Of a stretch of DNA of 64,000 bases, positions 19,497 through 63,560 are shown in pieces. Source of the stretch: Heliocidaris erythrogramma. Taxonomy: Eukaryota; Echinodermata; Echinoidea; Camarodonta; Echinometridae. The translations under genes and the position numbers were made by a program. The notes beneath the pieces were generated by a model. That model saw nothing but the letters and a program-made list of their open reading frames with translations, was not told the origin of the DNA and made no database searches. The stretch's first letter is position 1. Every line of letters begins with the position of its first letter. The stretch covers positions 24,211,761 through 24,275,760 of the forward strand of contig CM046857.1 in NCBI GenBank assembly GCA_025617745.1, given 5' to 3'.

Positions 19497-19558
19497 GGTC
19501 TATCGGTAAAGCACATGACTACCATGGTCAAGGTACCTGGTTCGATCCCCGGGGCCGA
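19497..19558 (+). repeat. tRNA-like segment in Helentron unit 1 (degenerate)
   Basis: It matches the tRNA-like segments of the other units but is altered in the anticodon arm. The GGTTCGATCCCCGG B-box remains, followed by a T run. Confidence 0.5.
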
Positions 19559-21275
19559 TTTTTTTTTTGGTTTTTTTTTTGCTTCTTTTTGCCTGTCATT
19601 TTACCATCCTCTTCGACTAGTATAACATAAAAAATCACAAATCATGTAATAAACTGCCTTATTTTCCCGTATTATGTCTATTAGAAAGTAGTGTGCAGTA
19701 GTTTTGTGTACAACCCTATGGAAATTGTGATTTCCTGTCCTGTATTAGAGCTAAGGGGTTAATCTGCCAAGTATCCTGTATCATCATCATTATTATCATC
19801 ACCGTCATGATCATCATCGCTATTATATCATCGCCATCATATATCATTATAATCATCATAATCACCATTATCATCATCACCATAATCATTTTACAATGAC
19901 CGTTACACATTTTGCTACATTCCCGTCCCCAAGAAGGACCTCCATTCATGGCAATCTTGACATCCTATCTTCAGTTTAGTATTTCCCCATTATTATGATC
20001 ATCCTGATTACAATCATGATCGTACAAATTGAAGGACAGACCACCTAATTCGTCCTCATGACGAATTAAATTCTAGTTTTTATTATTTCTTCTTTTTATT
20101 ACAAATTTTTGTTCCCACCAAATCTCAAAATCGGTCAGGTCACTATCATCGAGTTTCATGTCATGTATGAGGTCAATCATGGACATGGTCAACTAAGCTT
20201 TTGAAGGTCATCAGGTCATCGTGACGTCATCAAGACGCCATTTTGTAAATTTACAAGATCGATTATATCTTCATAATCGATCATCAAAAATCAACTATAT
20301 TCATATCACATAAACTTCACATGACGGGTCATCAAGTCATGTCCTCACAGGTCATCTAGAGGTCAGCACGTGTGCGTACGCGCGCGTCAAAATTTAAAAA
20401 TGCTCAAAATCACGTAGGATCAAGTCTGCACACGTTTCAGGTCATTTTGAGCATTTCAAAAATGTCCGTGCGTAAGCGTCCGCGCGCGCGTTTTACGCGC
20501 GCGCAAGTCGTAAATAACGTTAAAACGCTGTTTTTTGGATTGATTTGCAATCCTGACACTTTTCTTCATCATTTCCATCAATAATAAGGTCGTACGGGCG
20601 CGTCAAAGTTCAAAATCGATGCGCGCATCTATGGCGAAAATAACGTAAAAACGTTCAAAAACATGCCTCTACAAAATTAACTCTAGCTCTTTAAATAGTC
20701 TATAAACCCCCCAATTTTTTTTCATCATCAGGTAGGGTATGAATCATAGATATGATTTCATGTATCATTTGACGCTTATAAACATTATGACGTCATCAAA
20801 ATGGCGCCAGAATTCAAAATTTCCATTTTTCATGTTTTGACGTCATCACATTTATGCAAATTTGGCTCTAGATTCGTAATTATTGGTCGTTTTTCGCCCA
20901 GATTTTAATATGTTGTAGCTGAGGCAATTTCCTACAAAATCAGTCACCACCATTTTCCATTTTGATGACGTCATCACAGTTAAATTTTCAATTAAAGATG
21001 CCATGTCAGAATTTTCCCTATTTGCGTGTTATGTCTATGGAAGATGATTTTTTTTCGAATCATGAATCTACATGACATTGTTCCCTGAGCTGTATCTCAG
21101 TTGTTTTTGGTCTATTTTCTTCCAGATTTTAGTATGTTATAGCTGAGACTATAAGCTTTTACAAATGTGGTCTCCAATTTTTGATCAGATGTCGGGATCA
21201 TGCCCAATTTTTCACTACAAAATGTGATTTGAGAATCCCGTTTTTCGTTTACGTGTTATCTCTATGGGAAATGTT

Positions 21276-21341
21276 TTGGTATATTGGTCAAAGCACTTGC
21301 CTCTCATTCCGGTGACCCAGGTTCGATCCCCGGTGGGTCCA
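21276..21341 (+). repeat. tRNA-like segment in Helentron unit 2
   Basis: TTGGTCAAAGCACTTGCC with CAGGTTCGATCCCCGG resembles the D, anticodon and T arms of a tRNA-Gly-like sequence (CTC at the anticodon position). The acceptor ends do not pair, so it is not a functional tRNA gene. A long T run follows, as at a pol III terminator. Confidence 0.6.
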
Positions 21342-21589
21342 TTAATTTTTTTTTTTTTTTTTTGCTTCTTTTTGCCTTTCATTTTACCATCTTATTCGAC
21401 TATTATAACATAAGCAATCACAAACAAAGTAATAAAATGTCTTATTTTGCATGTTATGTCTATTAGAAAGTAGTGTGCAGTAGTTTATGTATAACCCTAT
21501 GTTAAATCTGATTCCCTGAAGTGTATTAAAGCTATCCTCAATATCATTAGTCCAATTTGATATCACAATTTCTCAAAATGATAATGATG

Positions 21590-22010
21590 TTGATGATAAT
21601 CATGATGATGATCATGATTATCATCAACATCATTATCATCATCACTGTCACGATATTCATGATGATGACTATCCTCAACATCATTATCATCATCACTGTC
21701 ATGATATTCATGATGATGCTGATGATTATCATCAACTTCATTATCATCACTGTCATGATGATATTCATGATGATGATGATGATGATGATTATCAACATCA
21801 TTATCATCAGCACTGTCATGATGATATAATGATCATCATCATGATTATCTTCAACATCATTATCATCATCACTGTCATGATGATATTCATGATGATGATG
21901 ATGATATAATATCACCGTCATGATCATCATTGCTATTATTATTGTCATCACCATCATTATATCACCTTCATCATGATAATCATCACCATTATCATGATTG
22001 TTATCTTGCA
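21590..22010. repeat. ATC/GAT microsatellite cores of the Helentron units
   Basis: Long interrupted (ATC)n/(GAT)n tracts lie here and at the matching place in the other units (19780-19890, 23700-23815, 25680-26400 and 26950-27115). Reading frames rich in Met/Ile/His over these tracts are artefacts. Confidence 0.85.
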
Positions 22011-23420
22011 CAAATATTATCACATCTTTCAATGACCGTTCCACACATTTTCTACATTCCTGTCCTCAAGAAGCATCTCCATGCGTGGCATTCTTGACTT
22101 CCTATCTTCAGTTTAGTATTTCCCCATTATTATGATCATCCTGATTACAATGATGATCATACCAATTGAAAGACAGACCACCTAATTCGTCCTCATGACG
22201 AATTAAATTCTAGTTATTTCTTTTTATTGCAAATTCTTGTTCCCAATAAATCTCAAAATCGGCCAGGTCAATATCATCGAGTTTCATGTCATGTATGAGG
22301 TCAATCATGGACATGGTCCATTAAGCTTTTGGAGGTCATCAGGTCATCGTGACGTCATCAAGACGCCATTTTGTAAATTTACAAGATTGATTATATCTTC
22401 ATAATCGATAATCAAATATCAACTATATTCACATCACATAAACTTCACATGACGGGTCATCAAGTCATGTCCTCACAGGTCATCTAGAGGTCAGGACGTG
22501 CGCGTACGCGCGCGTCAAAATTTAAAAATGCTCAAAATCACGTAGGATCAAGTCTGCACACGTTTCAGGTCATTTTGAGCATTTCAAAAATGTCCGTGCG
22601 TAAGCGTCCGCGCGCGCGCTTTATGCGCGCGCAAGTCGTAAATAACGTTAAAACGCTGTTTTTTCGATTGATTTCCAATCCTGACACTTTTCTTCATCAT
22701 TTCCATCAACTTGGAATCAATTTTGATCAATAATAAGGTCGTACGGGCGCGTCAAAGTTCAAAATCCGTGCGCGCATCTATGGCGAAAATAACGTAAAAA
22801 CGTGCAAAAACATGCCTCTACAAAATTAACTCTAGCTCTTTAAATAGTACACAAACCCCCCAATTTTTTGTCATCAGGTAGGGTATGAATCACAGATTTC
22901 ATTTCATGTATCATTTGACCCTTATAAACATTATGATGTCATCAAAATGGCGCCAGAAATCAAAATTTCCATTTTTCATGTTTTGACGTCATCACATTTA
23001 TGCAAATTTGGCTCTAGATTCGTAATTATTGGTGGTTTTTCGCCCAGATTTTGATATGTTATAGCTGAGACAATTCTCTACAAGATCAGTTCCACCGTTT
23101 TCCATTTTGATGACGTAATCATATTGAAATTTTCAATTAAAAACGACATGTCAGAATTTCCCCTTTTTGCGTGTTATGTCTATGGAAGATGATTTTTTTC
23201 GAATCATGAATCTACATGACATCGTTTTCTGAGCAGTATCTCAGTTATTTTTGGTCTATTTCCTTCCAGATTTTAATATGTTGTAGCTGAGACTATAAGC
23301 TTTTATTAGTAAGCCCTCCAATTTTTGATCAGATGTCGGGATCATGCCCAGTTTTGAACTACCAAATGGGATTTGAGAATCCCGTTTTTCGTTTACGTGT
23401 TATCTCTATGGGAAATATTT

Positions 23421-23485
23421 TGGTCTATTGGTCAAAGCACTTGCCTCCCATGCAGGTGACCCAGGTTCGATCCCCGGTGGGTCCA
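23421..23485 (+). repeat. tRNA-Gly-like segment in Helentron unit 3
   Basis: The anticodon loop TCCCATG gives CCC, and the T arm CCAGGTTCGATCCCCGG is well kept. This copy is closest to a tRNA-Gly(CCC). The 5' acceptor strand (AATATTT) cannot pair with GGGTCCA. A T run follows. Confidence 0.6.
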
Positions 23486-25228: not shown

Positions 25229-25293
25229 TGGTCTATTGGTTATAGCACTTGCCTCTCATTCCGGTGACCCAGGTTCGATCCCCGGTGGGTCCA
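25229..25293 (+). repeat. tRNA-like segment in Helentron unit 4
   Basis: This is the same module as in unit 2, with CTC at the anticodon position, a preserved B-box and a T run after it. Confidence 0.6.
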
Positions 25294-26499
25294 TAATTTT
25301 TTATTTTTTTTTGCGTCTTTTTGCCTTTCATTTTACCATCTTCTTCGACTATTATATCATATACAATCACAAACCATGTACTAAACTGCCTTATTTTGCG
25401 TGTTTTGTCTATTGGAAAGTAGTGTGCTGTAGTTTGTGTACAACCCTATGGAAACCCTATTGGGTTTATCTCCCAAGTATCCTGCAATGTCAAATAGTGC
25501 TAGTGCTCTTTCGTCAGTCATCAGTCCTAATAAGGTCAAGTTCCCGCAACTTTTTCAAGGTCATCAGATTATCGTGACGTCATCCAGGCGCCTTTTTGTA
25601 AAAATCAACTTATGGTCGTATCTTCGTAACAAAATGTGATTTCTCTTTTATATTTGGCATGGTTAAGGTCACTGTCATTGCAGTCATGGTCATCATCATT
25701 ATCCCCATCATCATCATTATCACCATCATCATCATTATATCATCATCATGATTATCATCAACATCATTATCATCATCACTGTCATGATATTCATGATGAT
25801 GCTGATGATTATGAACTTCATTATCATCATCACCTTTATGATGATATAATGATCATCATCATGATTATCATCAACATCATTATCATCAACATCATTATCA
25901 TCATCAATGTCATGATGATATTCATGATGATGACTATCATCAACATTATTATCATCATTACTGTCATGATATTCATGATGATCATGATGATGATTAACAT
26001 CAAAATCAGTATTATCATCACTGTCATGATATAATCGTCATCATCATGATTATCATCAACATCATTATCATCACTGTCATGATATAATCATCATCATGAT
26101 TATATCATCACCATCATTATCATCACTGTCATGATATTTTTGATGATGATTATCATCAACATCATTATCATCATCACTGTCATGATATTCATGATGATGC
26201 TGATGATTATGAACTTCATTATCATCATCACCTTTATGATGATATAATGATCATCATCATGATTATCATCAACATCATTATCATCATCAATGTCATGATG
26301 ATATTCATGATGGTCATGATGATATTCATGATGATGACTATCATCAACATTATTATCATCATTACTGTCATGATATTCATGATGATCATGATGATGATTA
26401 ACAATAAAATCAGTATTTTTAATTTGTAAACAAATCTTTCGGCATATTACTCCCAGTGTTAAAGATCGTATGCTCGATCTGTAATGAAAAACACAAGTC

Positions 26500-26575
26500 A
26501 GAAAAAATTGGAACCAGCGGGATTCGAACCTGTCATCTACTGCTTGCCGGGCAGCGACTTAACCACCAGGCTATT
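26500..26575 (-). repeat. tRNA-like sequence in left foldback arm
   Basis: On the minus strand the sequence has a 7-bp acceptor pair GAACCAG/CTGGTTC, a D-arm-like CCTGGTGGTTAAGTC, an anticodon stem around CCGGCAA and a GGTTCGAATCCC B-box. Position 33 is C and not T, and the T stem has a mismatch. A functional tRNA is unlikely. Confidence 0.5.
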
Positions 26576-26746
26576 CTGGTTCACGGCCAAGTCACGACGA
26601 AAGATTTGTTTACAAATTAAAAAATTCCTCCCCAGTCAAGCTTCTTCGTTTACTAACCATTGTCCACGGCGGACCGTTTGAATATTAATGAGTCAGAAAG
26701 AAGAGGATCTTGGGTATTTGATTCTAGTTCGTCGTGACTTGGCCGT

Positions 26747-26820
26747 GAACCAGAATAGCCTGGTGGTTAAGTCGCTGCCCGGCAAGCAGTAGATGACAGG
26801 TTCGAATCCCGCTGGTTCCA
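26747..26820 (+). repeat. tRNA-like sequence in right foldback arm
   Basis: This is the mirror copy of the tRNA-like segment at 26500-26575, on the plus strand and followed by a T run (AATTTTTT). Confidence 0.5.
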
Positions 26821-27303
26821 ATTTTTTCTGACTTGTGTTTTTCATTACAGATCGAGCATACGATCTTTAACACTGGGAGTAATATGCCGAAAGATTTGTT
26901 TACAAATTAAAAATTCCTCCCCAGTCAAGCTTCTTCGTTTACTAAAATCAGTATTATCATCACTGTCATGATATAATCGTCATCATCATGATTATCATCA
27001 ACATCATTATCATCATAACTGTCATGATATAATGATCATCATCATGATTATCATCAACATCATTATCATCATCACTGTCATGATATTCATCATGATGATT
27101 ATCATCAACATCATCACATCTTCCAATGACCGTTTCACACATTTTTCTACATTCCTGTCCTCAAGAAGCATCTCCATGCGTCGCATTCTTGACTTCCTAC
27201 ATGTATCTTCAGTCTAGAATTATGATCACCCTGATTACAATCATGATCATACAAATTGAAAGACAGACCACCTAATTCGTCCTCATGACGAATTAAACTC
27301 TAG

Positions 27304-31450: not shown

Positions 31451-32150
31451 GATTTTTGTTATTACACAGCAGCAATTATGTTGCAAATACATTTTCGAAC
31501 TGTTCGCCGTGTTCGAATAGTTCCAGGCAAGATGTGGGTGTCCGATTTGATAATTTTGTTGAATTGGGACCGTTGCAGTAACAAGAGCTGATCCTAACTG
31601 GTTAGCTTTCTTGAGTAGTTATGCTTCCACCTCTATGCCTTGGCATTGGGAGTGAGGCAGTGGAGGCTTAATAGATGGATTAGCCTCAGTCACAGAACCT
31701 AGTGTATTCATAAGATGATAAACTTGTCGGTATGTAGCTAAACCTGTCTACTTGAAATAAATCTGAGGAGATTGGAATAGAATTTAGCAATTAACAGCAT
31801 GACCAAGGTGGTCTAGGATTTGGACTTGATCAGAAACAGGGCCAAAGAACTGAACTTTTTTGGTTCCTCATCATAGCTCAAGTCCAGGACTAAAGTGCTG
31901 ATACTTTCCTGGAGTATTTTATATTTGCTAGAAGGTATTCAAAAGAGCCACTGAGAAGGCCTGTGGTGCAATTGTAGCTCAGCATTCTTGTGACTTGCAT
32001 GATTGGGCTACATGCATATTAGCCATGGACTTGATGAGTTGGGGACCATAAGACGTATAAGTTTACATATTGGTTGCGCTTACAGGTAAGCTTGGCTTTA
32101 GAGGAGATATGGCCAATAGTTTGTGAGATGGTTCCTCTAATACTATCTTG
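31451..32150. other. no recognisable feature
   Basis: I found no coding frame with known motifs and no element ends here. Confidence 0.4.
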
Positions 32151-33900
32151 CTATTCAAGGAAAATCACAAATATGGCAATTAATGTATCACTAGAAACTG
32201 GGAAGCTTACAGATGGCAATCGTATAAGTTTTATGTCAACTGCGTATCTGATGATTATAAAAACAACACAAATAAAAGCTCTTCTCAGCATCTGGAATAT
32301 CCGAGGATTCGCCAGAAATATAACGATGTTTTGATGTCGTCACACTCGGGATCGATCCTGCTTAAGCAGACGACGTCCTATAATGAATGAACGTAATTGC
32401 AATGCAATTATTTATCAAATTATAAAGAGATTGGTGTATTTAAACATGACCTTATTTCACACCATTATAAAGGGAAAGTGAAACTGATTCTGATAGCTAA
32501 AACCGTTTCATTGTAAATACACAGGAGAAGGGTCAATGATCAATGAAATAAACCCCACTTTCAAATTGAAAAGCCCTCCGAATAATAGCAGGATGGTATT
32601 TGTTCCCTCTTGAAACGCCGAACATGCCCCGCGCGTTTACGTTTTACAACCTAGCCTAGGCATATTTTCCAAATATTGCGACGAAACGGCTCGAGCTCAC
32701 TCTAAGTACTGACTGTGGCGTTGGATCGAATGCGTATAATTTATATTCCGTTTTGTCACCTGTACACTCCATACACTGATGTAGGCAGCTACGCATTGAA
32801 GCACAGACGTGTGTATTTGACAGACGTGTGTATTTCTTCATCACAAATGAAGCGTGATGAGGGGATGAGATAAACGAACAAGGGCACATTCACATTTATG
32901 CAGGGGGAAGGGGGAAGGGGGGGGGGGGGGGAAGGGGGAAGGGGGGGGGGGGGGGGGAAGGGGGAAGGGGGGGGGTGACAATCAGTTGGCATCAGTTCAG
33001 TTCAGTTCAAAATGACATTTATTTACCCAAAAAAAATGCACACAAAAATATGGGCAAACTCAGAGACAGAGTCAGAGGCAGAGGCAGAGCTAACAACACT
33101 GCAGTCAGACTCAGAGTCAGACTCGGAGCCTTCAGCGATTTACCCTGAACCTGAGGCTGAGCTTGAGACTTCATCATCACCCACCTCCATCATGTCGATA
33201 TCTACTTCGTCTTCGACCGCGCGTCGCAAATTGATTCTAGCTAACACACCCGACGTCGAATGATATGAACGACAAAACGTGCACATTAATTCATTCAAAG
33301 AACCCGCGTCTCGATCTCTCTACGTTACGTTATGCGCTCGCTACGTATGTGTAGGGTTGCTACAATGCGTAGGGTTGAGCTCAAGCCGTTTCGTTGCGAT
33401 TTTGGAAAAATCTGCCTAGGCAAGGTTGTAAAACGTAAACGCGCGCCCCGGTGCAAGCAGCTGAAAATACAATGGCGTCTTATTTTGTTTACAAGTGACT
33501 GATTCCTTTATTTTTTTAACGCTGCATTTTTCATCAAAATAATACCATACACGAAGTTAAGAGTGAGGCAACAGACTAACATTAAGACTGACGCTAGTGA
33601 AGGAAGAGAAATAAGTGAAGAGGAGATGACAAAATAGGCTCTGAAAAATGTGTAAGATGTTATGGGACATCGTCTGCTTAGACAGGACTGGTCCATGGTG
33701 TGTCGTCACATATCTCAGCAGCGTTCGAGGAGCTCTTCAGCTGCTATATCGGGGGCTGTATTTTACCGTTTTATAATTGATAATAATCATTACTTCAAAT
33801 GTTTCCAAGCGTTGAATTTGGATAACCTTGTTTAATTTATGCCATCTATGCAATAATAAGTATTAAGCCAATATTTAAAATCATTAAAGTTCTACTTTAA
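32151..33900 (-). mobile_element. TTAA-type element, copy 2, with a nested insertion
   Basis: It is the reverse complement of 61446-62370 over almost all of that element's length. Its right end (…CTACTTTAA, TTAA at 33897-33900) matches, while the last ~9 bases at the 32151 end have changed. It carries an extra ~820 bp (32631-33447) that the other copy lacks. The minus-strand frame at 33508-33696 and the plus-strand frame at 61640-61846 are the same sequence, but I see no known protein motif in it. Confidence 0.75.
32631..33447. mobile_element. nested inverted-repeat element with GCGCGTTTACGTTTTACAAC ends
   Basis: CGCGCGTTTACGTTTTACAA on the left and TTGTAAAACGTAAACGCGCG on the right are inverted. 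The arms go on through a CCTAGGCA block and a CGAAACGGCTCGAGCTCA block. CCCCG lies at both edges, a possible 5-bp TSD. The site is absent from the homologous element at 61446-62370 (ATGCCGCGGTGC there), which confirms insertion. The centre has G-rich simple sequence (32900-32986) and an acidic 83-residue frame at 33012-33263 (SETESEAEAE, SDSESDSEP) that I cannot assign. Confidence 0.75.
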
Positions 33901-34079
33901 GCATGGTTGAATAAAGGATGGGCGTAGCAGAGTTTATAGTCCAGTAGAAGTTATTCAGACCTGGACAAGTTTTTAACTTAAAGGTTTTTTTGGTTGATTC
34001 GTGTTCTAGATGGGTATTGAGGTAAATTCAGCTGAATCCTATCCCCGCTGCCGAATTTTTTTAGATAAGTTTTGAGATT
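33901..34079. other. spacer, nothing recognised
   Basis: This is a short AT-rich interval between two element fragments. Confidence 0.4.
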
Positions 34080-34292: not shown

Positions 34293-34815
34293 GTTAAATA
34301 CAAGTGTTCTGATCCCAATTAATCGCACTTTGGAGTGAGCATCAGAGGGTTCTCATTTTGGCGAAGTCAATAGTAACAACTTTTGATAATTAAAAATAAG
34401 CTATCGAATTGAATGAATCTGCTGTATCATGCTGAATGACTGATATGACTTAATTCATACTTTCATTTTCGATCTGCTTAAAGGAGAATTAACCCCAGAA
34501 TATTAATGCACTTACCCTGATAGCAGAAAGTGGTAAAAATTACGTGATATTTCCGTCGTGGTTTTCGTCTTTTTACGTCCTGTAATTACGTCAATAAGAC
34601 GACAACTTGCACCAACGCAAGACGTCAAGAGGACGTCTTATTTTGACGTCATCTGTACACTGTAAAAACTGAAGTGCTGTATATAGCACTTTTTGAGGGC
34701 ATGCATAGGGACTGCACTAGAGTGCTATTGAATGCACACAGCGTGCTATTTCAGCACTTTCACGGGAGCTGGACTGGCTCCTTAAACTGCTAAACATTCA
34801 TAAAAAAAAATGATT

Positions 34816-34880
34816 TGGGCGAGCTTCGAACCAGGGTCCGCTGATCGAGAATTGCTGGCATTACCGCTAGACTAACTCAC
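34816..34880 (-). repeat. tRNA-like segment, left arm
   Basis: On the minus strand: GTTAGTCTAGCGGTAATGCC (D arm), an anticodon-like arm around TTCTCGATCAGCG, then CCTGGTTCGAAGCTCG (T arm). It is probably a decayed tRNA copy and not an active gene. Confidence 0.5.
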
Positions 34881-34986
34881 ATTGTACGATTTAGAGCAGA
34901 TCATATTGTTACATAGTGAATTTACGATACCACATAGTTCATGTTATCTACTTGACTCCCATGACTAAACTGGATTGCAAGAAGCA

Positions 34987-35051
34987 TTCGTTAGTCCATC
35001 GGTAACGTCAGCGCCTCTCAATCAGCGCAACCTGGTTCGAGGCTCGCCACG
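34987..35051 (+). repeat. tRNA-like segment, right arm
   Basis: CGTTAGTCCATCGGTAACG, then GCGCCTCTCAATCAGCG, then CCTGGTTCGAGGCTCG mirrors the left-arm segment. A T run follows (AAATTTTTTTTTG). Confidence 0.5.
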
Positions 35052-36963
35052 GTCAAATTTTTTTTTGCTGGTAAATTAGCACACTACAAGTGCTATAAAC
35101 AGCATTTCAGGTGCAGTCACTATACATGCCCCTAAAAGTAGCACTTTAGTTTTTACAGTGTACAAGACGTAGAGATGACGTCAAAATAAGACGTCCTCTT
35201 GACGTCTTGCGTTGGGGCAAGTTGTCGTCTTATTGACGTAATTACAGGACGTAAAAAAGACGAAAACCGCGACGTAAATATCACGTCATTTAACACTTTC
35301 TGCTATCAGGGAAGAGGAATGAAGACGTAGAGATTACGTCAAAATAAGACGTCCTCTTGACGTCTTGCGTTGGTGCAAGTTGTAATTACAGGACGTATAA
35401 AAGACGAAAACCACGACGTAAATATCACGTCATTTTTTAATACTTTCTGCTATCAGGGTAGTTCAAAGGTGTAATATATTCTTAATAATTGGCCCGTGTT
35501 ACTTTAGAAATAGGATAATTATTAGAAAAGAGTTTAAATCGAGACATTCTAGCACACGGTATAATCTGCTAATACATGGGGGCTGCCATTTTCTTGATGA
35601 TATGGTGTTGTACATGAATTACTGGAAACCGTTCCGGTCAGGAAGATATTTTTAATCCTAGAGCTGAATTGCTTCTCTTCGTTACAAAAAAAATCCCCGT
35701 ATATGATGGAAAATACATAACAGATGTATACATATATTCAAAATTTTGAGATTTATAGAGTTCTTTTTAAATTCTCTGGTTTTGCTAAATAGAAATCGAT
35801 TTCTTGGGCTTGCCTGGCAAAGCAGAACATAATCTATAAACGCACATTCTGCATATTGAAGTCCATTATCTCAACGCAGGTTAATTATGCATAGTTTTAC
35901 ACTATTGACGCTCGGGAAAGTTATCATCCATAAATTTGAATTTGCTCCGTCGTGTACGTCATATCAAGAAAACAGATTTATATTTAGTAAAATAGTAATT
36001 TTCAGAGAAATATAAAACATTTTTGTTTTTAAAATAATTATGTATATACCTGTTAAATAGTTTAAATCTCAAATTCGATTTTGTATCAGGAAGAAAGACA
36101 ATTTTGCATTCGGATTAATATCTTCATGTACACATCAAGAAAAGGGCAGCCCCCCGGTATCGCTAGCAGTCGATAAATTTTGCTGAGAAAATCTTTAATA
36201 CCCATCTCGTATATTTCAATGCAAAACTACGTAAGACAACAGAAAGAAACAGATTACATCTTGGAATATAAGCACATTTATATTTTGAGGTTAATTCCCC
36301 TTTTAAGGGAGTTCGACTAATAGTATTTCAAATTTAGAAGGAATACTTCAAATACAATTCAAGATGGGAAGTAGGCTATTATTACAAAAAAGCACATGTT
36401 TGTTCATTCATTCGTTCGTTAAGTTCATTTCCAGAAGAAAAAAAAAATTCCCCCTGTGGGTCCGGGGGTTAGAATAGGCCCACTGTATCCTACTGCATGT
36501 CGTAAAAGGCGACTAAAAGGGGCGGCTTGTTTGCCGTGAGCTGCGACCCGTGTCTGTGGAGAAAGGGATCCTGGTGATTGAGTGGATGGTGTGACTGCGG
36601 TCCTGCTAAAGCAACACATCACTTTGGCCCTGGATTCACCTAGACGGGAGGTTATATAGGCCTGGATATAACCAATCGGCTGGTGGTGCTCAGCCCTAAA
36701 ATACAAATACAATTTATAATAACCAACATTGATTTTAGTCTGTGTCTCAATAACTGCGAATCACTAATTTTGTCAAGATTTGTATTTTTTAAGGCAGCTG
36801 CTTGATCAGGTCAATCTGGGTGTATTTTATTACACCTGGAGTATAGTACTGTTCGTATCTCTGTCGTCAGTATAAGATGTTTTTATCCTTATATGTATGA
36901 CGTCCCCTTCTTGGGCTCCGTGGTGGGTGGGGAGCAATGGTACCGAATTTTTAATCAATTAAT

Positions 36964-44200: not shown

Positions 44201-47200
44201 CAGACTGCAGTGAATGTTTAAATGATACTAATCATGCCCCACCCTCGTAACTGATCAAAATATATTTAAAAGTGATTAGAAAAAAGGTTTAGATCGAACC
44301 TTAAAGGGAAATTAACCTCAGCGTATGAATTAGCTTATTTTGAATGGTGTAGTATATGCCTCTTATTTGATACATGCAATTTCATGTAAAAACACAGGAT
44401 ATAGATATAAATCACTATTTTCCAGCCAAGTTATCGTCTGCTAGCAATAATAAGGGGGCTGCCATTACTTTATGTGTACACGAACATATTTTTCATCCCA
44501 AGTAAAATTTCCTTCATCGTTAACTTGTAATTGATTTTTAGAGGACAAATATATATTAGATAAAGTCACATATTCTGAAATGTAAGTTTAGTTTTATATA
44601 TTTTTTAAAAGGTCTTAATTTGTTCATAAAAAATATACTTCATAAAAAAATATACGTCAAGGACGGAGAATTGACGTCAAGGACGGAGACAATCGTAACA
44701 ATACCAAAACAAAGCGAGGAATCTGCTTTACAGGATGGCTATTAGAACTCATGGGTCGTCAATTATCTAGGCCCATGGCCAATAACAATCGTAATACAAT
44801 CAGAACAAAGCGACGTATCTGTTGTAAAGGTAGGCTATTATCAATGCATATGGTACCTAATGATCCGTGTCATGCACAAAATGGCAGCCTCCATGGAAAG
44901 ACGTAGCAGACAATAGGTGCATCTAGAATATCACGTGGGGTTAATTGTCCTTTAACTAGTGTACTTACGAGTAAACGATGAGCTAAGAATTAATATTATT
45001 ACTTGAAACTACACCTTTCGCATCTCATAGAATCGCCACTAATGAACTGTGGAGGCGCTTTCCAACGAACAAAAAAGATAAGACAATCCAGAGCAGCGAC
45101 AACTCTCTTGTCGGCGAGCTTGTCGCTCATCTTGGCAAAGACGGTGTTGTGAAACACCTCGCGGACAAGTTGAGGGATAGCGCATGAGTTGTCGCCGTGC
45201 TGGAGTTATGACGCTTTCGTGAAACGGCCCTCAGCTTGATAAGCCAATGAGCTCGCACAGCTAGGTTTTCTCATAATAAACTATTCTTTGGAGTCTTTTT
45301 GTAGTCATGTACATTCAAACGAAGATATTTTTATCCGGTCATAAGATATTTGGTTCAGCCGTTTCTTTTGTTAAGCAGGATTTGGCATGCAAAAGTTGTT
45401 GCTAGGTCAAACAAAGGTTTGTCAATTCTTCAGAGAAATGACGAAAACCTACTACTGAACTATCACCAGTGTGAGACAATGCGGGTACTAAGATGGCTGC
45501 CATTTTGCATTGGTGGCTATAGCTGTACAATAGCTAGTCGGTGTGCAACATCACATACATTGTGTACGAGTAAATGGACATGTACAACTATGGCATCTGT
45601 TTTTTTTTCAAAATGGCAGCCCCCAAGAGATATCTAGCAAGGAATCTGCAAACTTTAGAGATATTTCTCCTTAAGAGTATTTTCAAGATATTTTTGAACA
45701 GGCTGACAATTTTCCACAGTCATGATTATCGGCTAATAATTGGTGGGTTTCATTCTCCTTCAAAGAAACCTGATTAAATCAATATATCTTGTCAGTACAA
45801 AACGGGTCTACGTGAATATGAAATGCTACAAGGTGACTCTACTTCAACCCATGTAAAACTACAGAACGACCTAAAAAACACAGAAGCGTTAGATTTTTTT
45901 AAAACATCAAAATTCCAGCTGTTTTGACGGGACATGTATGAAATAAAAAGTATTTTTGTGACCCAAACAGAAATAAACGGAATATAATTTGTTTCTTTAT
46001 AATAAAGCCGTAAAGCCGATTCGGAATTTATCTTCCTACGTAAGACGGACCATTTCTTGTATCATGTTGAATCGCCTTTTTTGTTTTTCGTTTGTTTGAT
46101 TTTTGTTCGTTTCGGTTTTTTTTGTCATACTATGAAAATTGGAATGTTACAAAACTCGTTTACACTTCCGGCTTTCAGTTCAATGGCGTAGAGGGCAAGG
46201 GGGATACAGACTGAAAGAAACCCCTCCGAACGGGGGAATAAATTTGATACATGGAGGATTTGCAGACAATAGGATGCTCAAGTGTAAACTCTCTACAGAC
46301 GGTTGTAGAACGAACTGTCTAATGTCCAAGGGACATTGCACGGTCACATTCATTTGTCATCGTTCCTAGGCGCGATTAACTTTCAACCAATTACATTCTC
46401 TATGCAAATTGACCAATATAGAGACCGAAATCGTGGGCCCATTAATGGGGGGCCACACTGGGGCCACGTCAGTACGCTATACTCGGCCAGCTCTCGCTCT
46501 CTTTGCGGATCGGAGATAAGAGATGATCGATGTATGTACGTATACGAATCACCAACCATGGACATCTCATTGATCACTCGTTGGACTGTTGGATATCACT
46601 ATTTCCGTCCTGCAGGCCTATTTATAATAAAGACAGTCCAATATCTATTTATTTATTTATTTATTTATTTATTCCTGCATGTTTCCCAATAATCAGTTTC
46701 ATACATACAAACTTTGAAAATAGAAACACACAGAGATCTGGCAATATAAGCTGGACGCTTGAAGTGTTGCCATACCTAAGATCTTACATATTTCATACAT
46801 TCTTAAAAGTAAACATAGATTAATAGATTAAATACAAAAAAGTGCAAATATAATACACTATATACATATACAAAAACAGATAAAGAATAAGATTGAAATC
46901 TCTACAGTACGTTCTAGAGCAGGAAAAATGTAGCAGACATGATAAAAGGTGCAGTCCATCCATACTGAAGGAGAAAAGAGAGAGAGAAGAAAACGTAAGA
47001 CAAGAGAGAGGGGGGGGGGTGGGAAGATGCCCTAATTAACAATACCACTGCGCATAATTACATATCATGGCAAATTATCCATGTATACATATTATATAGA
47101 ATATATACAATTTGTAAACAAATCTTTAGGCATTTTACTCCCAGTGTTAAAGATCGTATGCTCGATCTGTAATGCAAAACACAAGTCAGAAAAAGTTGGA

Positions 47201-50200
47201 ACCAGCGGGATTCGAACCTGTCATCTATTGCTTGCCGGGCAGCGACTTAACCACCATGCTATTCTGGTTCACGGCCAAGTCACGATGAACTAGAATCAAA
47301 TACCCAAGATCCTCTTCTTTCTGACTCATTAATATTCATTTTTAACGGTCCGCCGTAGACAATGGTTAGTAAACGAAGAAGCTTGACTGGGGAGGAATTT
47401 TTAATTTGTAAACAAATCTTTAGGCATTTTACTCCCGGCAAGCAGTAGATGACAGGTTCGAATCCCGCTGGTTCCAATTTTTTCTGACTTGTGTTTTTCA
47501 TTACAGATCGAGCATACGATCTTTAACACTGGAAGTAAAATGCCTAAAGATTTGTTTACAAATTAAAAATTCCTCCCCAGTCAAGCTTCTTCGTTTACTA
47601 ATATATACAATCATAATATAATTAAGTACAGGCTATGTTCAGGGGAATTAACAACCAACTAATAGAACAAATATCTTAAATAAAAATGTTTGCAATGAGC
47701 ATGCGCTTGACTGCATTTTTAAAAGAGTAAATTGTAGGCAAATTACGTGTTTCAATTAGTAAAGAATTCCAAACATCTGGACCAGTATGTCTCACTGATT
47801 TATGTGCCAATACTGTACGTGGATTAAACAAGTGCAAGTTTGCCGCTTGTCTCGTCGAATAAGAGTGAATAGCATTGTTTTCCATGAACATGGAAGAAAA
47901 CGAGGCAGGTAAAACATTAGTAATATAACGATACATAAATAAAGAGGTTTGAAGAAAATTAATTTCACCGACTTTAAGGCATTTAAACCTAGCAAACAGG
48001 GGATCTGTGTGTTCATGATAACCAACCCCAGCACAAATTCTTAAAGCTTTTTTTTGTAACAGATGAATGTCACTTGTTACACTCTTTGACACTGCCCATA
48101 GAATATTACAATAAGAAATATATGGCAAAAACAAGGTATTATATATCATCAATAATCTGTCAGACACAAGATATCTTACTCTATTTAAATTCCCAATACT
48201 CCGAGAAATTGGAGACATTATACTGTTCCGGTGGTCATCCCAGTCTAGCTTCTCATTAATATGAACACCCAGGAACTTAGTACAAACCTTCCTCTCCAAT
48301 TCCACATCATCCAGTCTAACTACTTATTGTTGCTCATTGCAAATCTTCCTTCCCTTAAAATGAATATAATTTAAAGCTAACAAGTTACTTCGAAACCATT
48401 GTGTTAACTTAGGAAGTTCAATATTAATTCTAATACTCCAACCACATGCTGACGATCAGCAAGGGCCTGAGCCACACGGTCATAAAATTTTAACAATGCA
48501 AGGAAAAGGTTGAAAAGGTTGGCAAAATTGAAATTGGTCTATAATTGCAGATATTCATAACATTATCTTTTTTTATGAACAGGAACAACTTTAGCAAGCT
48601 TTAAAGAAGAAGGAAATACTCCAGTTACCAGAGAGAGATTACAAATGTGTGCCAGGGGAACCAAAATCAGACCAATGACCTGTTTTATGAAGGAAGTACT
48701 TATCTCATCATGCCCTCAGGAGTTACTATTTTTCAGTCATAATACAATATCGAGTATTTCCAAAGAATAAAAATTTAAAAAGAGAGATGCCTGGGAGGAT
48801 TAACAAGGTATTCCTTGTAATTTGTACCGCAGGTATTTATTTTCTTTGCTTGATTAAGCCCAATATTAGCAAAATACTCATTAAACATATTGGCAATATC
48901 TCTCGGGTCAACAATTTCTTTATCATCTTTTACAATTTTATGAGGAGCTTCCATTTTGTTGCGCTTACACAGAATATCTTTCACAACTCTCCAGGTGGAG
49001 GACATATTGCCACTCGCATTTTCGAATTTCCTTGAGTAAAATAATTTCCGTGATGACCTAATGGTTGATGTCAACTTATGACGATATTTCTTATACGTTT
49101 CAATATTCACGGGTGAGGGTTTCTTTACACTTCTTTTATATAAAACGTTTCTCCTTTTAATGGACTGAAGAATTCCTTTCGTAATCCAAGGTTTCCTCCC
49201 CTTCTTCCTTCTTATGCGTTCCAATGGTATATGCTTATCAAAATAAAAAGAAAACTTCCTCACAAATAATTAAAAGGCCTTCTCCGTGTTATCACAGGCT
49301 AACACATCAACCCATTTTTCTAAGAATAAATCATTATTCAAACTGAGTATGTTAATGTTGTCAAAATTTCGTCTGCTATCATTACATTTCTTCCGTGGCC
49401 CCTTTATAACATGGTCATACAGTATACAGAACACTGGTAAATGGTGAGATATTTCACAATAGAATAAACCTGACTGACTATGATCTTTTTCCGTCTTTAC
49501 GAAAATATTATCCAACAGTGTTGATGACTGATCATTAATTCTTGTTGGTTTATCAATCAATATTCCAAAGGCATTCGATTCCAAAACAGTTCGGAGACGA
49601 AGGGTATTCGGGTTATTACATAATAGATCAATATTATAATCACCCATAATACAGACAGATTTATTCAATTCATTAATATCAATCAATAAAGATTCAAGAT
49701 CGTCCAAATATAGGTTCACATCTGTTTTTGGTGGGCGATATACGACACAAACAATCATACTTTTCTCATTGAGAAGGTCTGCCTCCACACACAAACATTC
49801 GGCACTGTTATTTTTAAAACCCAAGTCATGTCTCACTTTAAATGCCAATAAGTTTGAAATATACACGAGAACACCACCACCACGCCCATTCGCTCTGTCA
49901 TTACGTACCTACTTATATCCCTCTAACGTAAACAGAAGAGCGGACTTAGCAGTCAACCATGTTTCAGTTATTCCAATTATTGAAAATCTAAATTTCAACG
50001 AGGATAACAAAATATTGAAATTATCAACATTCTTAGGGAGACTTCTTGCATTACAATGTAAAAAACTCAACAATTGCGTTTCATGGGAATATTGAGACAT
50101 GTCCAAACAGAACTCATGTGGCACATAATATTGACAATCGTTATTTTGTTGTAATTCATATTCTTCTATATTCATTTAAATTCAAATAAGCAAACACATC

Positions 50201-59179: not shown

Positions 59180-59345
59180 GTATGTACAAAACATGATGAA
59201 GATGTCATATTTTAGGTTCAGGTTTGTTTATGGACTAAAAGATATTCCTTATTAAGAAAAATGTCACAATTCTACAAAGACTTGGGGTGGGTTCCAGAAA
59301 TTCAGAAATCAAAGTTCTGGGAAATAACTCAATTTCGGTGTACGT

Positions 59346-59365
59346 AGGTCAAAGGTCACAGGTCA
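59346..59365 (+). promoter_or_regulatory. three AGGTCA half-sites spaced by one base
   Basis: AGGTCA occurs at 59346, 59353 and 59360, each separated by a single base. This is two overlapping DR1 sites as bound by RXR/HNF4-type nuclear receptors. It lies in an intron, so its function is only a possibility, and similar words also occur in animal repeats. Confidence 0.3.
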
Positions 59366-60046: not shown

Positions 60047-60943
60047 ATGAGTTCGGAAGAACAAGCTGCTAGGTTGCGGAGACCTGCTTCTTCCGAAGAG
60101 TCGTCTAGCAAGACGACTCGGCCTTTCAGAACTCTCCTGAGTACTTTCGTACATGGGGGACGGAGGAGGGCTGCAGGTAAGTTGCCCAGTGGTGTTTCCC
60201 TGCAGGGTTTGCCAGCCTCGGAGCATGGGGCTTCGGGGTGGGTGGCGTTAGTTGAGCTTGGGACGTCAAGCTCTAGTGGTTTGGATATCATAAATCCAAT
60301 CCCCCGGTCGCTCAGACCAGAAGGGGCGACGTCTGTTTCCCGCACGGTAGCGATGACCTGCATAAATCCGCTAGGGGAGACGCGTGCCACTACTGCAGGG
60401 CAGCTCACGGGCACCGCCCATGTTGGTCTGGGTTCTCAAACCCTAGCCCCCGGCCGATGCCAAGTGGGGGAGCGAGTACTACCCGGGCTGTTGCTTTTGC
60501 CAGCTGATGGGAAGACTCGAGCCAACAGTTATGGGCGTTTTACGGAGTAACAGGTGCGGTCACCTAAGTGCGCGACTACTAGTGCTCTCCTATTGCCGCC
60601 CACGGGCGGAACAATAGCGAGTTCACATACTATTAGTAGTCGGTGGGCGAATACTGGGACCTCGTCCCAGTCTGTCCTCGCACTGGGCGCCTCAAGCGCC
60701 CGGCCCATGGCTGTAGCATCTTCTTGCTCAGCCAGTATGGGTAATTTGTGCGCGACTTCGGGTACATACCCTCAGCGCACTTCTCCCATAGAGGGAGGCG
60801 GGCATCCCTCTGTGGAGGGTTTGATTCGTGTTTCCGAAGCTTTTTCGGAGAACCGCCCGAAATCTGTCAGACGCCCTAAGAAGCGGGTCACGGCTTCGGC
60901 TCCTGTTGAGCCAGCTAAAAAGAAGCCTAAGAAGGGGTTCTAA
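60047..60943 (+). pseudogene. DIRS gag, N-terminal part
   Basis: The frame starts at an ATG soon after a pyrimidine-rich leader and codes a Ser/Gly/Thr-rich protein. An in-frame TAA at 60548 is followed by the same frame to 60943, where it ends in KKRVTASAPVEPAKKKPKKG, a basic tail. GC content is clearly higher than in the surroundings. I assign it to gag because of its position before the recognisable DIRS parts. Confidence 0.55.
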
Positions 60944-60989
60944 AAGAAGCAACGCTTTGCCTGCCTCTTGCCCGTCTGACCGTCTGACC

Positions 60990-61430
60990 CCTCTCAGTCT
61001 GAGATGCTCAGCATGATGCGGGTTTTTGCCCAACGACAGGGTTGGTCCCTCTTACCAGAGAGAAATACCCTCGGAGGAATCTTGCTGCCTGAACCAACGC
61101 GAAGTCGAACCATGCGCGCGGGCTGACTGAAATTCAGGGAGATATTTGGACAACAAAGCAATCGCCTCTACCCAACAAAGGGAGAGCGATTGAGGCTCTG
61201 CCTGCTCCAACAATGTCGGTTCAGAAACCGAAGCTTGAGAAGCCACATCCAAATCTGGTTCCGCTTGCATTGATTGGGACAATGGTCCACGAACAAAAGC
61301 CGAAACAGGCGGACACTCCGATGGACCACTATAAGTCTCCTCACCCGGCGGAGCCCCGATGGCTGCGGGTATAGGAGGCGCGAGAGATCCCGTCTCAGAC
61401 AATGAGGAATCAAGCACAAAAGGCTGGTTA
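60990..61430. other. DIRS gag middle, possibly inverted
   Basis: The plus strand reads SEMLSMMRVFAQRQG for a short way. From about 61050 the longest frame is on the minus strand (61417-61052), Pro/Ser/Glu-rich with SLCWVEAIALLSKYLPEFQ. This could be an inverted piece of gag or a chance frame; I cannot decide. Confidence 0.3.
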
Positions 61431-61445
61431 AGGGCCCAATTTTGA

Positions 61446-62370
61446 TTAAAGTAGAACTTTAATGATTTTAAATATTGGCTTAATACTTATTATTGCATAG
61501 ATGGCATAAATTAAACAAGGTTATCCATTTGAAACATTTGAAGTAATGATTATTATCAATTATAAAACGGTAAAATACAGCCCCCGATATAGCAGCTGAA
61601 GAGCTCCTCGAACGCTGCTGAGATATGTGACGACACACCATGGACCAGTCCTGTCTAAGCAGACGATGTCCCATAACATCTTACACATTTTTCAGAGCCT
61701 ATTTTGTCATCTCCTCTTCACTTATTTCTCTTCCTTCACTAGCGTCAGTCTTAATGTTAGTTTGTTGCCTCACTCTTAACTTCGTGTATGGTATTATTTT
61801 GATGAAAAATGCAGCGTTAAAAAATAAAGGAATCAGTCACTTGTAAACAAAATAAGACGCCATTGTATTTTCAGCTGCTTGCACCGCGGCATGTTCGGCG
61901 TTTCAAGAGGGAACGAATACCATCCTGCTATTATTCGGAGGGCTTTTCAATTTGAAAGTGGGGTTTATTTCATTGATCATTGACCCTTCTCCTGTGTATT
62001 TACAATGAAACGGTTTTAGCTATCAGAATCAGTTTCACTTTCCCTTTATAATGGTGTGAAATAAGGTCATATTTAAATACACCAAACTCTTTATAATTTG
62101 ATAAATAATTGCATTGCAATTACGTTCATTCATTATAGGACGTCGTCTGCTTAAGCAGGATCGATCCCGAGTGTGACGACATCAAAACATCGCTATATTT
62201 CTGGCGAATCCTCATATATTCCAGATGCTGAGAAAAGCTTTTGTGTTGTTTTTATAATCATCAGATACGCAGTTGACATAAAACTTATACGATTGCCATC
62301 TGTAAGCTTCCCAGTTTCTAGTGATACATTAATTGCCATATTTGTGATTTTCTTTGAATAGCTACTTTAA
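61446..62370 (+). mobile_element. TTAA-type element, copy 1, inside DIRS
   Basis: TTAAAGTAGAAC at the left and the complement of the right end, TTAAAGTAGCTATTC, abut TTAA at 61446-61449 and 62367-62370. The same element, inverted and itself interrupted, is at 32151-33900. It contains no protein that I recognise. Confidence 0.75.
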
Positions 62371-62511
62371 GGGTTAAGGCCTTTGCCTTTGGTTCCCAAG
62401 ATCAAGACAGCTTTTTCAAGGCTAAGTCTCTCTCTCTGGAGATTTTAGCGGTGGGTCGGCGTCTGCGTGCGACCAATCCGCTTCTTTTTCCTTTAAGTCT
62501 GAGGATAAGCG

Positions 62512-63051
62512 TTGGAGCAAATGTTGAAGTCAGAGCAGGTATGCGCTTGGCTGCTTTTCAAGGTTTTCTCTCCGACCTCCAGGGCGGAGGGGTTGAATGT
62601 CACTGATGGTGATAAGCTGGTTATTGATGACCTGCTGCACTCTCTTTTTAGTTTGCAGTGGTCACAACTTTCCAGTGCGGCTGCTTTGGTTACGTACCGT
62701 CGCAGGGTTTTGGCCCTCTCTGCCCTCGGGGTTAAGGAGTCTGACATCGCGTCACTTCTCCGGGATGTCCCGTCCCGGGGTCCTTCGCTCTTTGGCGGTC
62801 AATTCGCTACAGATTTTCAGAGGGAGATTGATGCGCGGAAGCAGGTCACTGAGATGACTAAGCAAGCCCGTCGGAGGCCTGTTGCTCCCATTTCGGGACA
62901 ACACAGTCGTGTTTCTGGGGGCCTGTCTGCTGAGTTTCAGCCAGTTCCTTCTCGTGGGAGAGGGGGGCGTGGCAGAGGCTCTTCGAGAGGTACTCGTGGC
63001 TCCCTGCGTAGCAAGGCGACGGCTTCGCACAAAGCTAAGCCTAGTCTTTGA
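62512..63051 (+). pseudogene. DIRS gag, C-terminal part
   Basis: The frame codes SSAAALVTYRRRVLALSALG, then SRGPSLFGGQF, then EIDARKQVTEMTKQARRRP, and ends in an Arg/Gly-rich tail (RGRGGRGRGSSRG). This pattern matches DIRS gag proteins as I recall them. The upstream continuation (62375-62510) is in other frames. Confidence 0.65.
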
Positions 63052-63059
63052 TGGTCTTC

Positions 63060-63204
63060 CCCGAGCGCTTGTTCAATCCGACATGGTAGGTGGCCGACTT
63101 CGTTCTTTTCACCCGGCTTGGGAGGCCATCTCCGGGGACGCATTCGTGCTCTCTGTAGTGCGAGACGGATTCTTCATAGATCTATCCGCCTCGCTCCCCG
63201 GAGG
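63060..63204 (+). pseudogene. DIRS pol, N-terminal fragment
   Basis: VGGRLRSFHPAWEAISGDAF, then VLSVVRDGFFIDL, is the usual start of DIRS pol just before RT. The foldback element splits it at 63205, and the reading resumes after 63560. Confidence 0.65.
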
Positions 63205-63560
63205 CTAAATTTTTTTTCCCACGAACTTTTTGTCCCTGTCCTCCCTGGCGCATGCGCACCTGATCCTTTCCGATCTAAATCAATTTCGCAATCATAGGGT
63301 TTATTCCGTAAGCGATATAATGACGATTGCTCCCAGCGTCTTGCTGTGGCGAGATGCGTTAGCCCTCGGACATTTAACCTGAGGTATGTGGGTTCGACTC
63401 TCAGTTTGGACATTATAAAAATAACGTTTTGTATTTTTATTATTACTAAAAGTAGGATGAAACTTTGAAACCCCATCCAATTCCAAGCATTGGAGGGCTA
63501 TTTCAAAGTTGCGCATGCGTCAAGGACGATAGTGACAAAAAGTTCGTGGGAAAAAAAAGT
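63205..63560. mobile_element. foldback element with an internal tRNA-like segment, in DIRS pol
   Basis: TTTTTTTTCCCACGAACTTT at the left and AAAGTTCGTGGGAAAAAAAA at the right are inverted ends. TCGCTCCCCGGAGG occurs at 63191-63204 and 63561-63574, a direct repeat of up to 14 bp read as TSD. The centre (about 63345-63413) has a tRNA-like arrangement with GATGCGTTAGCC and GTGGGTTCGACTCTC. Confidence 0.7.

What the first reader, a model, noticed from the sequence alone, without database searches (positions are those of the whole stretch)
19497..63560. tRNA-like segments captured independently by four kinds of DNA element
tRNA-like modules with a B-box and often a following T run occur in the Helentron-like units (19497, 21276, 23421, 25229), in the foldback pair (26418-26943, 47111-47599), in the CACTGTAAAAACTG element (34816 and 34987, facing each other) and in the foldback at 63205-63560. 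In two families the copies sit divergently in the inverted arms. Repeated capture suggests a role such as pol III transcription, replication pausing or insulation, and not chance.
Basis: partly seen in the sequence, partly recalled or inferred. Interest (0 to 1): 0.75.

Follow-up and report, generated by a model that had tools for sequence, protein, structure and literature searches.

The report
tRNA cassettes in Penelope-type retroelements, Helitrons
Several unrelated mobile elements in this animal genome carry a small tRNA-gene-like cassette; the 'foldback' pair looks like a reverse-transcribed Penelope-type element rather than a DNA transposon, which suggests a little-known kind of genomic parasite built around a tRNA gene.

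Summary
The modules are real; the interpretation needs correcting. The window holds 8 perfect B boxes against 0.075-0.175 expected, all in the Helitron units and foldback pair. Covariance support in the window is weak: ARAGORN 0, best Rfam tRNA 24.3 bits against a cut-off of 29. The foldback pair is not a DNA element: its 290-bp unit forms tandem, head-to-head arrays elsewhere, with 12-14 bp target-site duplications and a 31-42 nt 'tail' between outer ends in the 9 elements measured. These are published hallmarks of Penelope-like retroelements (PLEs). Two further families (B, C) show similar anatomy and good tRNAs (43.5-54.4 bits); a PLE-type reading frame exists in the genome; no hammerhead was found. 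The Helitron module is present in 40 of 40 copies sampled by flank, in two versions, B box invariant; the B box is more conserved than the rest of the type 1 module, but not shown to be more so than the Helitron outside it. The CACTG and 63204 elements carry fixed modules without clear extra B-box conservation. Best reading: tDNA-like cassettes in at least two element classes, one a tRNA-bearing PLE satellite. Function is inferred.

The parts
19497..19559 (+). Helitron tRNA-like module, type 2, followed by T runs
   Evidence: A box 1 mismatch, B box perfect, T10; same type in 11 of 40 genome copies
21276..21342 (+). Helitron tRNA-like module, type 1
   Evidence: type 1 in 29 of 40 copies
23421..23485 (+). 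Helitron tRNA-like module, type 1, best tRNA score in the window
   Evidence: RF00005 24.3 bits, below the cut-off of 29
25229..25293 (+). Helitron tRNA-like module, type 1
26418..26942 (.). Penelope-type element, family A: head-to-head minus/plus units
   Evidence: unit coordinates of outer ends 165 and 197; 13-bp TSD
26405..26417 (.). left copy of 13-bp TSD TAAAATCAGTATT
26943..26955 (.). right copy of the 13-bp TSD
26511..26582 (-). tRNA-like module with 7-bp acceptor stem, then T6
   Evidence: tRNA-Sec model 19.4 bits, cut-off 47; B box perfect
26747..26818 (+). tRNA-like module, second arm, then T6
47112..47599 (.). second family A element, middle differently arranged
   Evidence: outer ends 159 and 197 in the unit
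47100..47111 (.). left copy of 12-bp TSD AATATATACAAT
47600..47611 (.). right copy of the 12-bp TSD
47199..47270 (-). tRNA-like module of the left arm (ends approximate)
   Evidence: perfect B box at 47218-
47434..47475 (+). remnant of the right-arm module: B-box half only
   Evidence: unit match starts inside the module
34513..35461 (.). outer foldback element that carries the CACTG element (edges from self-match, approximate)
   Evidence: inverted match; nearly the same flanks in 15 of 15 copies
34658..35160 (.). CACTGTAAAAACTG element with TA at both edges
34816..34885 (-). tRNA-like module, B box 1 mismatch, A box perfect, T9
   Evidence: no tRNA match in Rfam
34987..35056 (+). tRNA-like module on the other strand, B box 1 mismatch, A box 1 mismatch, T9
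   Evidence: no tRNA match in Rfam
63204..63564 (.). fixed 361-bp TIR element with 9-bp TSD TCCCCGGAG, inserted in a DIRS-like region
63341..63413 (+). doubtful tRNA-like module (B box 1 mismatch, A box 2 mismatches, T4)
   Evidence: no tRNA match in Rfam

Best explanation
The modules are tDNA-like cassettes (A box, B box, T-run terminator) acquired by unrelated mobile elements. The foldback pair belongs to family A, an abundant non-autonomous retroelement with Penelope anatomy. Its tandem 290-bp units, each with one tRNA-like cassette, are copied by target-primed reverse transcription from both strands of a staggered break. That gives head-to-head inverted arrays, a roughly 35-nt tail at one end and a 12-14 bp TSD. 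Shown: this anatomy in family A and, in fewer loci, in B and C; a constant outer end; an RT plus GIY-YIG frame in the genome. Inferred: that such a PLE supplies the enzyme. In the Helitron the cassette is kept and exists in two versions, with boxes and terminator retained. Most likely role (inferred, about 0.35): a TFIIIC/Pol III site that makes a short tRNA-like RNA and keeps the element's locus accessible. I do not think it is the promoter of the template RNA, because T4-T8 follows directly and junctions do not cluster at the tRNA start.
For: Arrays such as L039 (2 minus units, then 5 plus units) lie wholly between TSDs. Exact TSD of 12 bp or more in 12 of 22 located elements against 2 of 460 swapped flank pairs (one of the 2, of 62 nt, compares overlapping DNA of L044; L047 and L048 look like one event); L044-C has 12 bp once its edge is corrected. 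In all 9 family A elements measured (those with a TSD of 10 bp or more, out of 15 located) one outer end is at unit position 196-198 and the other at 156-166: tails 31-42 nt, mean 35 (L042 and L054 trimmed by eye at the TSD). Tails of about 31 nt (B, L043) and 45 nt (C, L056) were read by eye. 12 TSDs are 82% A+T against 62% for the window. 14 loci chosen by the 3' 20-mer (shared by construction) lose homology at varying distances upstream; 5,248 exact copies of that 20-mer. RVT_1 (29.1 bits, just under its cut-off of 29.6) and GIY-YIG (25.5, cut-off 22.6) in one frame at L155; 121 GIY-YIG matches over cut-off. Families B and C: tRNA 43.5-54.4 bits, five matches in L043 and L044. PLE hallmarks in print: PMC3846280 (passages), PMC11167929 (passages and first part of section 3). 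Helitron.
Against: No hammerhead, which PLEs are reported to carry (PMC7761336 passages), was found. TSDs are longer than the 8-10 bp in the Adineta passages. No shared sequence between families A-C and a PLE was tested; the enzyme link rests on anatomy. 10 of 22 elements lack a TSD of 12 bp or more, 9 of them lack even 10 bp, and the ends of the six family A elements without a TSD were not measured. The first loci were chosen by a perfect B box, so 'every PLE-type family has a tRNA' cannot be concluded. tRNA folding of family A is sub-threshold in the window and absent at E<=1 in its arrays. Helitron copies were sampled by an exact flank and all lie on contig C1; 25 of the 67 listed places lie within 55 kb of each other. 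Outside the module the Helitron is about as conserved as the B box.
Confidence: 0.7

Rival explanations
1. Family A is an ordinary tRNA-headed SINE moved by a LINE, and the inverted arms are frequent twin-priming products.
For: tRNA-like part, a constant outer end, loss of homology at varying points, 12-14 bp TSD; LINE-type RT and endonuclease frames lie in the window.
Against: Internally repeated 290-bp monomers, two preferred outer ends 31-42 nt apart in the 9 elements measured, T6 right behind the tRNA, and no clustering of junctions at the tRNA start (1 of 18, expected 1.9). The tRNA-headed family at L051 has no T run behind the tRNA.
Confidence: 0.15
2. A retrozyme-like cycle: circular RNA monomers are reverse transcribed by rolling circle, with the tRNA replacing the hammerhead as the processing site for RNase P and RNase Z.
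For: Monomer size of about 300 bp, tandem copies and TSD longer than 4 bp match metazoan retrozymes (PMC7229834 passages); no hammerhead found.
Against: Cutting at the tRNA would remove it from the template, yet arrays keep the tRNA in successive monomers; no RNA data.
Confidence: 0.25
3. The modules are passengers: tRNA-like DNA was in the founder copies and is kept only because the copies are young.
For: No clear excess of B-box conservation in the CACTG and 63204 families, none against the Helitron outside the module, none visible in Helitron type 2; the copies fetched are 97-100% identical, though chosen as best matches.
Against: Helitron B box invariant in 40 of 40 while the rest of the type 1 module has 36 of 59 invariant columns, two module versions at one site, T run of 5 or more in 40 of 40.
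Confidence: 0.35
4. Chance matches to A/B boxes.
For: The 63391 module has no tRNA match, mismatches in both boxes and only T4; 1.7-2.6 such pairs are expected by chance.
Against: 8 perfect boxes against 0.075-0.175 expected; genome-wide excess of 57 to 120 fold. Plausible only for 63391.
Confidence: 0.05

Closest known systems
Penelope-like elements (Penelope/Poseidon) and their pLTR structures
   Same: Partial tandems, head-to-head inverted copies, 30-40 bp optional tail, TSD, A+T-rich sites, cleavage and extension of both strands (PMC3846280 passages; PMC11167929 passages and part of section 3).
   Different: No coding capacity in the roughly 290-bp unit, no hammerhead found, a tRNA-like cassette in the monomer, TSD 12-14 bp.
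Short non-autonomous Penelope elements of heliconiine butterflies
   Same: Non-autonomous Penelope elements are mentioned there (PMC6685494, two passages).
   Different: The passages say nothing of a tRNA part or of array structure.
Metazoan non-LTR retrozymes
   Same: Small tandem monomers of about 300 bp, non-autonomous, PLEs/Terminons named as likely mobilisers (PMC7229834 passages; PMC7761336 passages).
   Different: Hammerhead not found here; tRNA-like cassette present; head-to-head arrays, while the word 'inverted' does not occur in the main text of PMC7229834.
Helenus (TRIM with a tRNA-like sequence in its LTRs)
   Same: Mobile element with a tRNA-derived Pol III promoter-like part (PMC10886601, abstract and outline).
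   Different: LTRs, PBS and PPT with 4-5 bp TSD; family A has 12-14 bp TSD and tandem units; PBS and PPT were not sought.
tRNA-derived SINEs
   Same: tRNA-like part with A and B boxes, constant outer end, truncation (general features recalled).
   Different: T-run terminator right behind the tRNA; tandem head-to-head arrays; two preferred ends.
Helitron/Helentron-like non-autonomous tandem elements (HINE type, recalled)
   Same: Terminal hairpin and CTAG-T 3' end by eye; tandem units with microsatellite core.
   Different: A tRNA-like cassette in 40 of 40 sampled copies; the searches returned no paper and a list of six of which I opened none.

Membership tests
Penelope-like element (as non-autonomous member) | partial tandem and head-to-head inverted copies | tested here: met
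   families A, B (L043) and C (L044, L050, L056); L046-L048 of family B are direct only
Penelope-like element (as non-autonomous member) | 30-40 bp tail between two reverse-transcription start sites | tested here: met
   31-42 nt in the 9 family A elements measured, of 15 located; B about 31 and C about 45 by eye
Penelope-like element (as non-autonomous member) | target-site duplication | tested here: met
   12 or more bp exact in 12 of 22; swapped control 2 of 460
Penelope-like element (as non-autonomous member) | RT plus GIY-YIG reading frame | tested here: not met
   no room in the 290-bp unit, so not an autonomous PLE; such a frame is elsewhere in the genome (L155)
Penelope-like element (as non-autonomous member) | sequence shared with an autonomous PLE of this genome | not tested
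metazoan retrozyme | type I hammerhead ribozyme | tested here: not met
   no Rfam hammerhead at E<=1 in L039-L045 or E<=10 in 26410-26950; strict core regex 0 hits in 9 loci, the unit and two window stretches; L046, L050, L056 by regex only
metazoan retrozyme | circular RNA | not testable with these tools
   needs RNA data
SINE | tRNA part with A and B boxes | tested here: met
   tRNA 43.5-54.4 bits in B and C; family A below threshold
SINE | Pol III transcript runs from the head through the body | tested here: inconclusive
   T4-T8 starts 12-19 nt behind each perfect GGTTCGAATCC in 11 loci of families A-C; none in L051; no RNA data
   elements of about 230 to 1,990 bp, varying junctions, TSD 12-14 bp
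Mutator-like MITE (63204 element) | 9-bp TSD with TIRs | tested here: met
   14 of 20 loci exact (L084 and L085 have the same flanks), 1 with one mismatch, 3 with 2-4 mismatches as parsed, 2 not parsed; transposase not sought; the class name is recalled
Tc1/mariner-like MITE (CACTG element) | TA duplication in independent sites | tested here: not met
   15 of 15 fetched copies, the best of 725 candidates, have nearly the same flanks, so it moves as part of a larger element
Helitron | 3' hairpin then CTRR-T, no TSD | tested here: inconclusive
   hairpin and CTAG-T read by eye; Rep/Hel protein not sought
Helenus TRIM | LTRs, PBS, PPT, 4-5 bp TSD | tested here: not met
   TSD 12-14 bp in family A; monomers are tandem; PBS and PPT not sought

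The most novel reading that the evidence does not exclude
A class of 'tRNA retrozymes': non-autonomous elements of unrelated body sequence that each adopted a complete tRNA gene with terminator and are all moved by Penelope-type reverse transcriptases. In the same genome a Helitron family keeps, and has exchanged, a similar cassette, pointing to a shared advantage of Pol III occupancy for selfish DNA.
Probability: 0.4. Interest if true: 0.78.

Novelty: new variant of a known kind. Interest (0 to 1): 0.6.

Why it matters
If correct, PLEs have SINE-like parasites built on tRNA genes, which extends the retrozyme idea beyond ribozymes. The inverted 'foldback' form of such elements is explained by reverse transcription at both broken strands, which gives genome annotators a rule (two ends about 35 nt apart, 12-14 bp TSD) that separates them from DNA foldback transposons. 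Many thousands of tRNA-like sequences in such a genome would be element parts rather than tRNA genes. The Helitron result makes the question of why transposons carry tDNA-like parts testable by Pol III ChIP.

Tried and rejected
Rejected: chance for the perfect boxes (controls); the four Helitron modules as independent captures (tandem units of one family); PLE membership of the 63204 element. I first read a 14-bp TSD there, but 20 loci show a fixed element of about 361 bp with a 9-bp TSD. Hammerhead ribozyme in families A-C: none found. Cloverleaf stability by folding energy: no better than shuffles. A TSD control with random pairs of places (154 of 4000 with 10 bp or more, 120 with 12 or more) drew on loci that are themselves repeat arrays; I replaced it by swapped flanks. 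Rows dropped before the count: the family A fragments in L055 and L060 and the cross-matches between B and C units at their tRNA parts. B-box conservation in family A could not be tested: of 14 loci chosen by the 3' 20-mer only 3 keep part of the tRNA region, and 2 of these (L111, L112, alike) have lost the B box. Literature: searches returned nothing. One search returned one paper with the words 'nonautonomous Penelope' (two passages seen). Searches returned lists, of which I opened only the papers cited and PMC8490949 (passages: W-elements with hammerheads, the word tRNA absent). PMC4209133 and doi 10.1093/molbev/msab225 are not held.


Full report
Observation. The CACTG and 63391 modules have one B-box mismatch each; such boxes alone are common (14 in the window, 4.2-6.9 expected), and of these three modules only the two CACTG ones also have a good A box and a long T run. 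Formal tRNA support within the window is weak: ARAGORN 0, Rfam gathering 0, tRNA 24.3 bits at 23421, tRNA-Sec 19.4 bits on both arms of 26418-26943, and no tRNA match at E<=10 for the CACTG and 63204 elements. RNA folding energy of 8 modules is no better than shuffles.

The window's genome is held without a name (G000: 1.064 Gb, 26 contigs; window = C5:24211761-24275760). The word GGTTCGAATCC occurs 19,159 times against 160 for its reverse, and GGTTCGATCCC 6,038 against 105. The Rfam tRNA search had 104,536 first-look candidates, of which 63 were scored and all 63 matched, 60 of them on C12, mostly in one tandem cluster.

The foldback pair. The first loci found by the B-box word showed that the unit of the window's foldback forms tandem arrays elsewhere, for example C1:95 kb with two minus units followed by five plus units, most spaced 290 bp. 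The whole array, not the unit, is flanked by a duplication: TAACTTCAGAACT in L039, AAGATATGTGAAGT in L041, TAAAATCAGTATT and AATATATACAAT for the two window copies. Of 22 located elements of families A, B and C, 12 have an exact repeat of 12 bp or more at their edges and 13 of 10 bp or more, against 2 and 7 of 460 swapped flank pairs; one of the 2 compares overlapping DNA of L044. L044-C adds a 12-bp one after edge correction. L047 and L048 look like one event. Fragments in L055 and L060 were left out.

Ends. In unit coordinates (0 = first base of the tRNA-like part) the 9 family A elements that have a TSD of 10 bp or more (of 15 located; the other 6 were not measured) have one outer end at 196-198 and the other at 156-166, in either orientation: tails of 32, 40, 31, 32, 42, 34, 37, 32 and 38 nt, mean 35 (L042 and L054 trimmed by eye at the TSD). 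Inner junctions are scattered and do not gather at the tRNA start (1 of 18 within 15 nt, 1.9 expected). Families B (L043, L046-L048) and C (L044, L050, L056) match each other only over short stretches at the tRNA and have other tRNAs, yet show a similar layout; tails of about 31 (L043) and 45 nt (L056) were read by eye. L043 and L050 have no TSD of 10 bp or more. Their tRNAs score 43.5-54.4 bits with Rfam in L043 and L044, while the family A arrays in the same call have no tRNA match at E<=1. Fourteen family A loci chosen only by the 3' 20-mer (5,248 exact copies) lose homology at varying distances upstream, by truncation or by a junction; 3 of 14 keep part of the tRNA region. No DNA beyond the 20-mer was fetched there, so they do not by themselves show the 3' end.

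Mechanism. These features match what is published for Penelope-like elements. Partial tandems, a head-to-head inverted pLTR, a 31-bp tail and TSDs of 8-10 bp (some copies without) are described in Adineta (PMC3846280, passages seen). The anole Poseidon protein cuts and extends both strands, starts reverse transcription internally, the interval between two start sites corresponds to the 30-40 bp tail, and it prefers A+T-rich sites (PMC11167929, passages and the first part of section 3). Twelve TSDs here are 82% A+T against 62% for the window. The genome holds PLE-type frames: 121 GIY-YIG matches over cut-off among 150 scored of 1,721 candidates, and a 500-codon open stretch with RVT_1 (29.1 bits, just below its cut-off of 29.6) and GIY-YIG (25.5 bits) at L155. 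My reading is that both 3' ends of a staggered break prime synthesis on family A RNA, so each flank grows an array inward and the two meet head to head. The duplicated tRNA-like parts in the arms follow from that. That a PLE of this genome supplies the enzyme is inference from anatomy. No hammerhead was found, so these are not retrozymes as defined. Non-autonomous Penelope elements as such are in print (PMC6685494, passages); the tRNA part is what I did not find in the listings of my searches, most of whose papers I did not open.

What the cassette does is open. In 11 loci of families A-C a run of 4-8 T starts 12-19 nt behind each perfect GGTTCGAATCC, whereas the tRNA-headed family at L051 has none. 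This looks like a closed tRNA gene and argues against a SINE-type promoter for the whole RNA. I favour Pol III/TFIIIC occupancy with a short RNA, at about 0.35; it is not shown.

Helitron units. The four modules in the window are copies of one family; between the boxes they are more variable (16 of 31 columns invariant) than the boxes (20 of 22, A box counted by eye), while the sequence upstream of the module is about as invariant as the boxes (46-55 of 60 per block). The 20-mer just upstream occurs 4,198 times. I fetched 40 of the 100 listed places, all on contig C1, taking few from the dense cluster (38 distinct sequences). All 40 carry the module: 29 of type 1 and 11 of type 2, the B box exact in 40 and a T run of 5 or more in 40. 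In type 1 the B box has 11 of 11 invariant columns against 36 of 59 in the rest of the module (Fisher p=0.008); in type 2 nearly every column is invariant (45 of 47 before and 11 of 12 after the B box), so nothing can be said. In the listed range 65 of 67 flank places have a perfect B box downstream, 42.8 being expected at the type 1 change rate of 4% per base. These 67 include most of the 40, and 25 of them sit within 55 kb of each other, so they are not independent. Retention and two versions at one site suggest, but do not prove, selection or repeated conversion.

The CACTG element and the element at 63204. The first has 725 first-look candidates and 40 scored copies, all close to full length. 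In the 15 best, it lies in nearly the same outer sequence every time, so it is a part of a larger element; its two B boxes show 1 change in 330 cells against 0.83% overall, no clear excess. The second is a fixed element of about 361 bp with TIRs (632 candidates, the best 20 fetched); a 9-bp TSD was exact in 14 of 20 loci, and 12 of these 14 contain CCGG. Its B box is not conserved beyond the rest (0.9% against 1.2%), and its module has no tRNA match. I regard that module as doubtful.

Ascertainment. Loci are the best matches and thus young. Families B and C were found through a perfect B box, so PLE-type families without a tRNA may exist.

Noticed in passing
6561-6653, minus strand: 7SL-like sequence: Rfam Metazoa_SRP 34.3 bits (E 3.3e-05, below the cut-off of 70) with a B-box-like word; a possible 7SL-derived insertion.
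   Followed up: no
5873-6054: Perfect 182-bp palindrome with an (AT)14 centre.
   Followed up: no
32150-33903 and 61443-62362: Two nearly identical (97%) stretches in opposite orientation, apparently parts of a DIRS-like element (name recalled); the 63204 element is inserted near the second.
   Followed up: no
3157-4288: About 6.3 tandem copies of a 180-bp unit, 83% matches.
   Followed up: no
L066-L085, flanks: The 63204-type element inserts mostly at CCGG-containing sites, in two loci inside tRNA-like sequence by eye (L074, L075), so it may prefer the GC-rich arms of tRNA-like repeats.
   Followed up: partly
L051, L052, L057-L059: A separate tRNA-headed SINE-like family (GGTGTTGTGGATCAGTGG...CTTTGGCAAGACGTT), direct repeat of about 300 bp in L051, without a T run behind the tRNA there.
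   Followed up: no
G000:C12:18858807-18889677: Large tandem cluster of high-scoring tRNA genes, many spaced about 280-310 bp, mostly 74.2 bits each.
   Followed up: no
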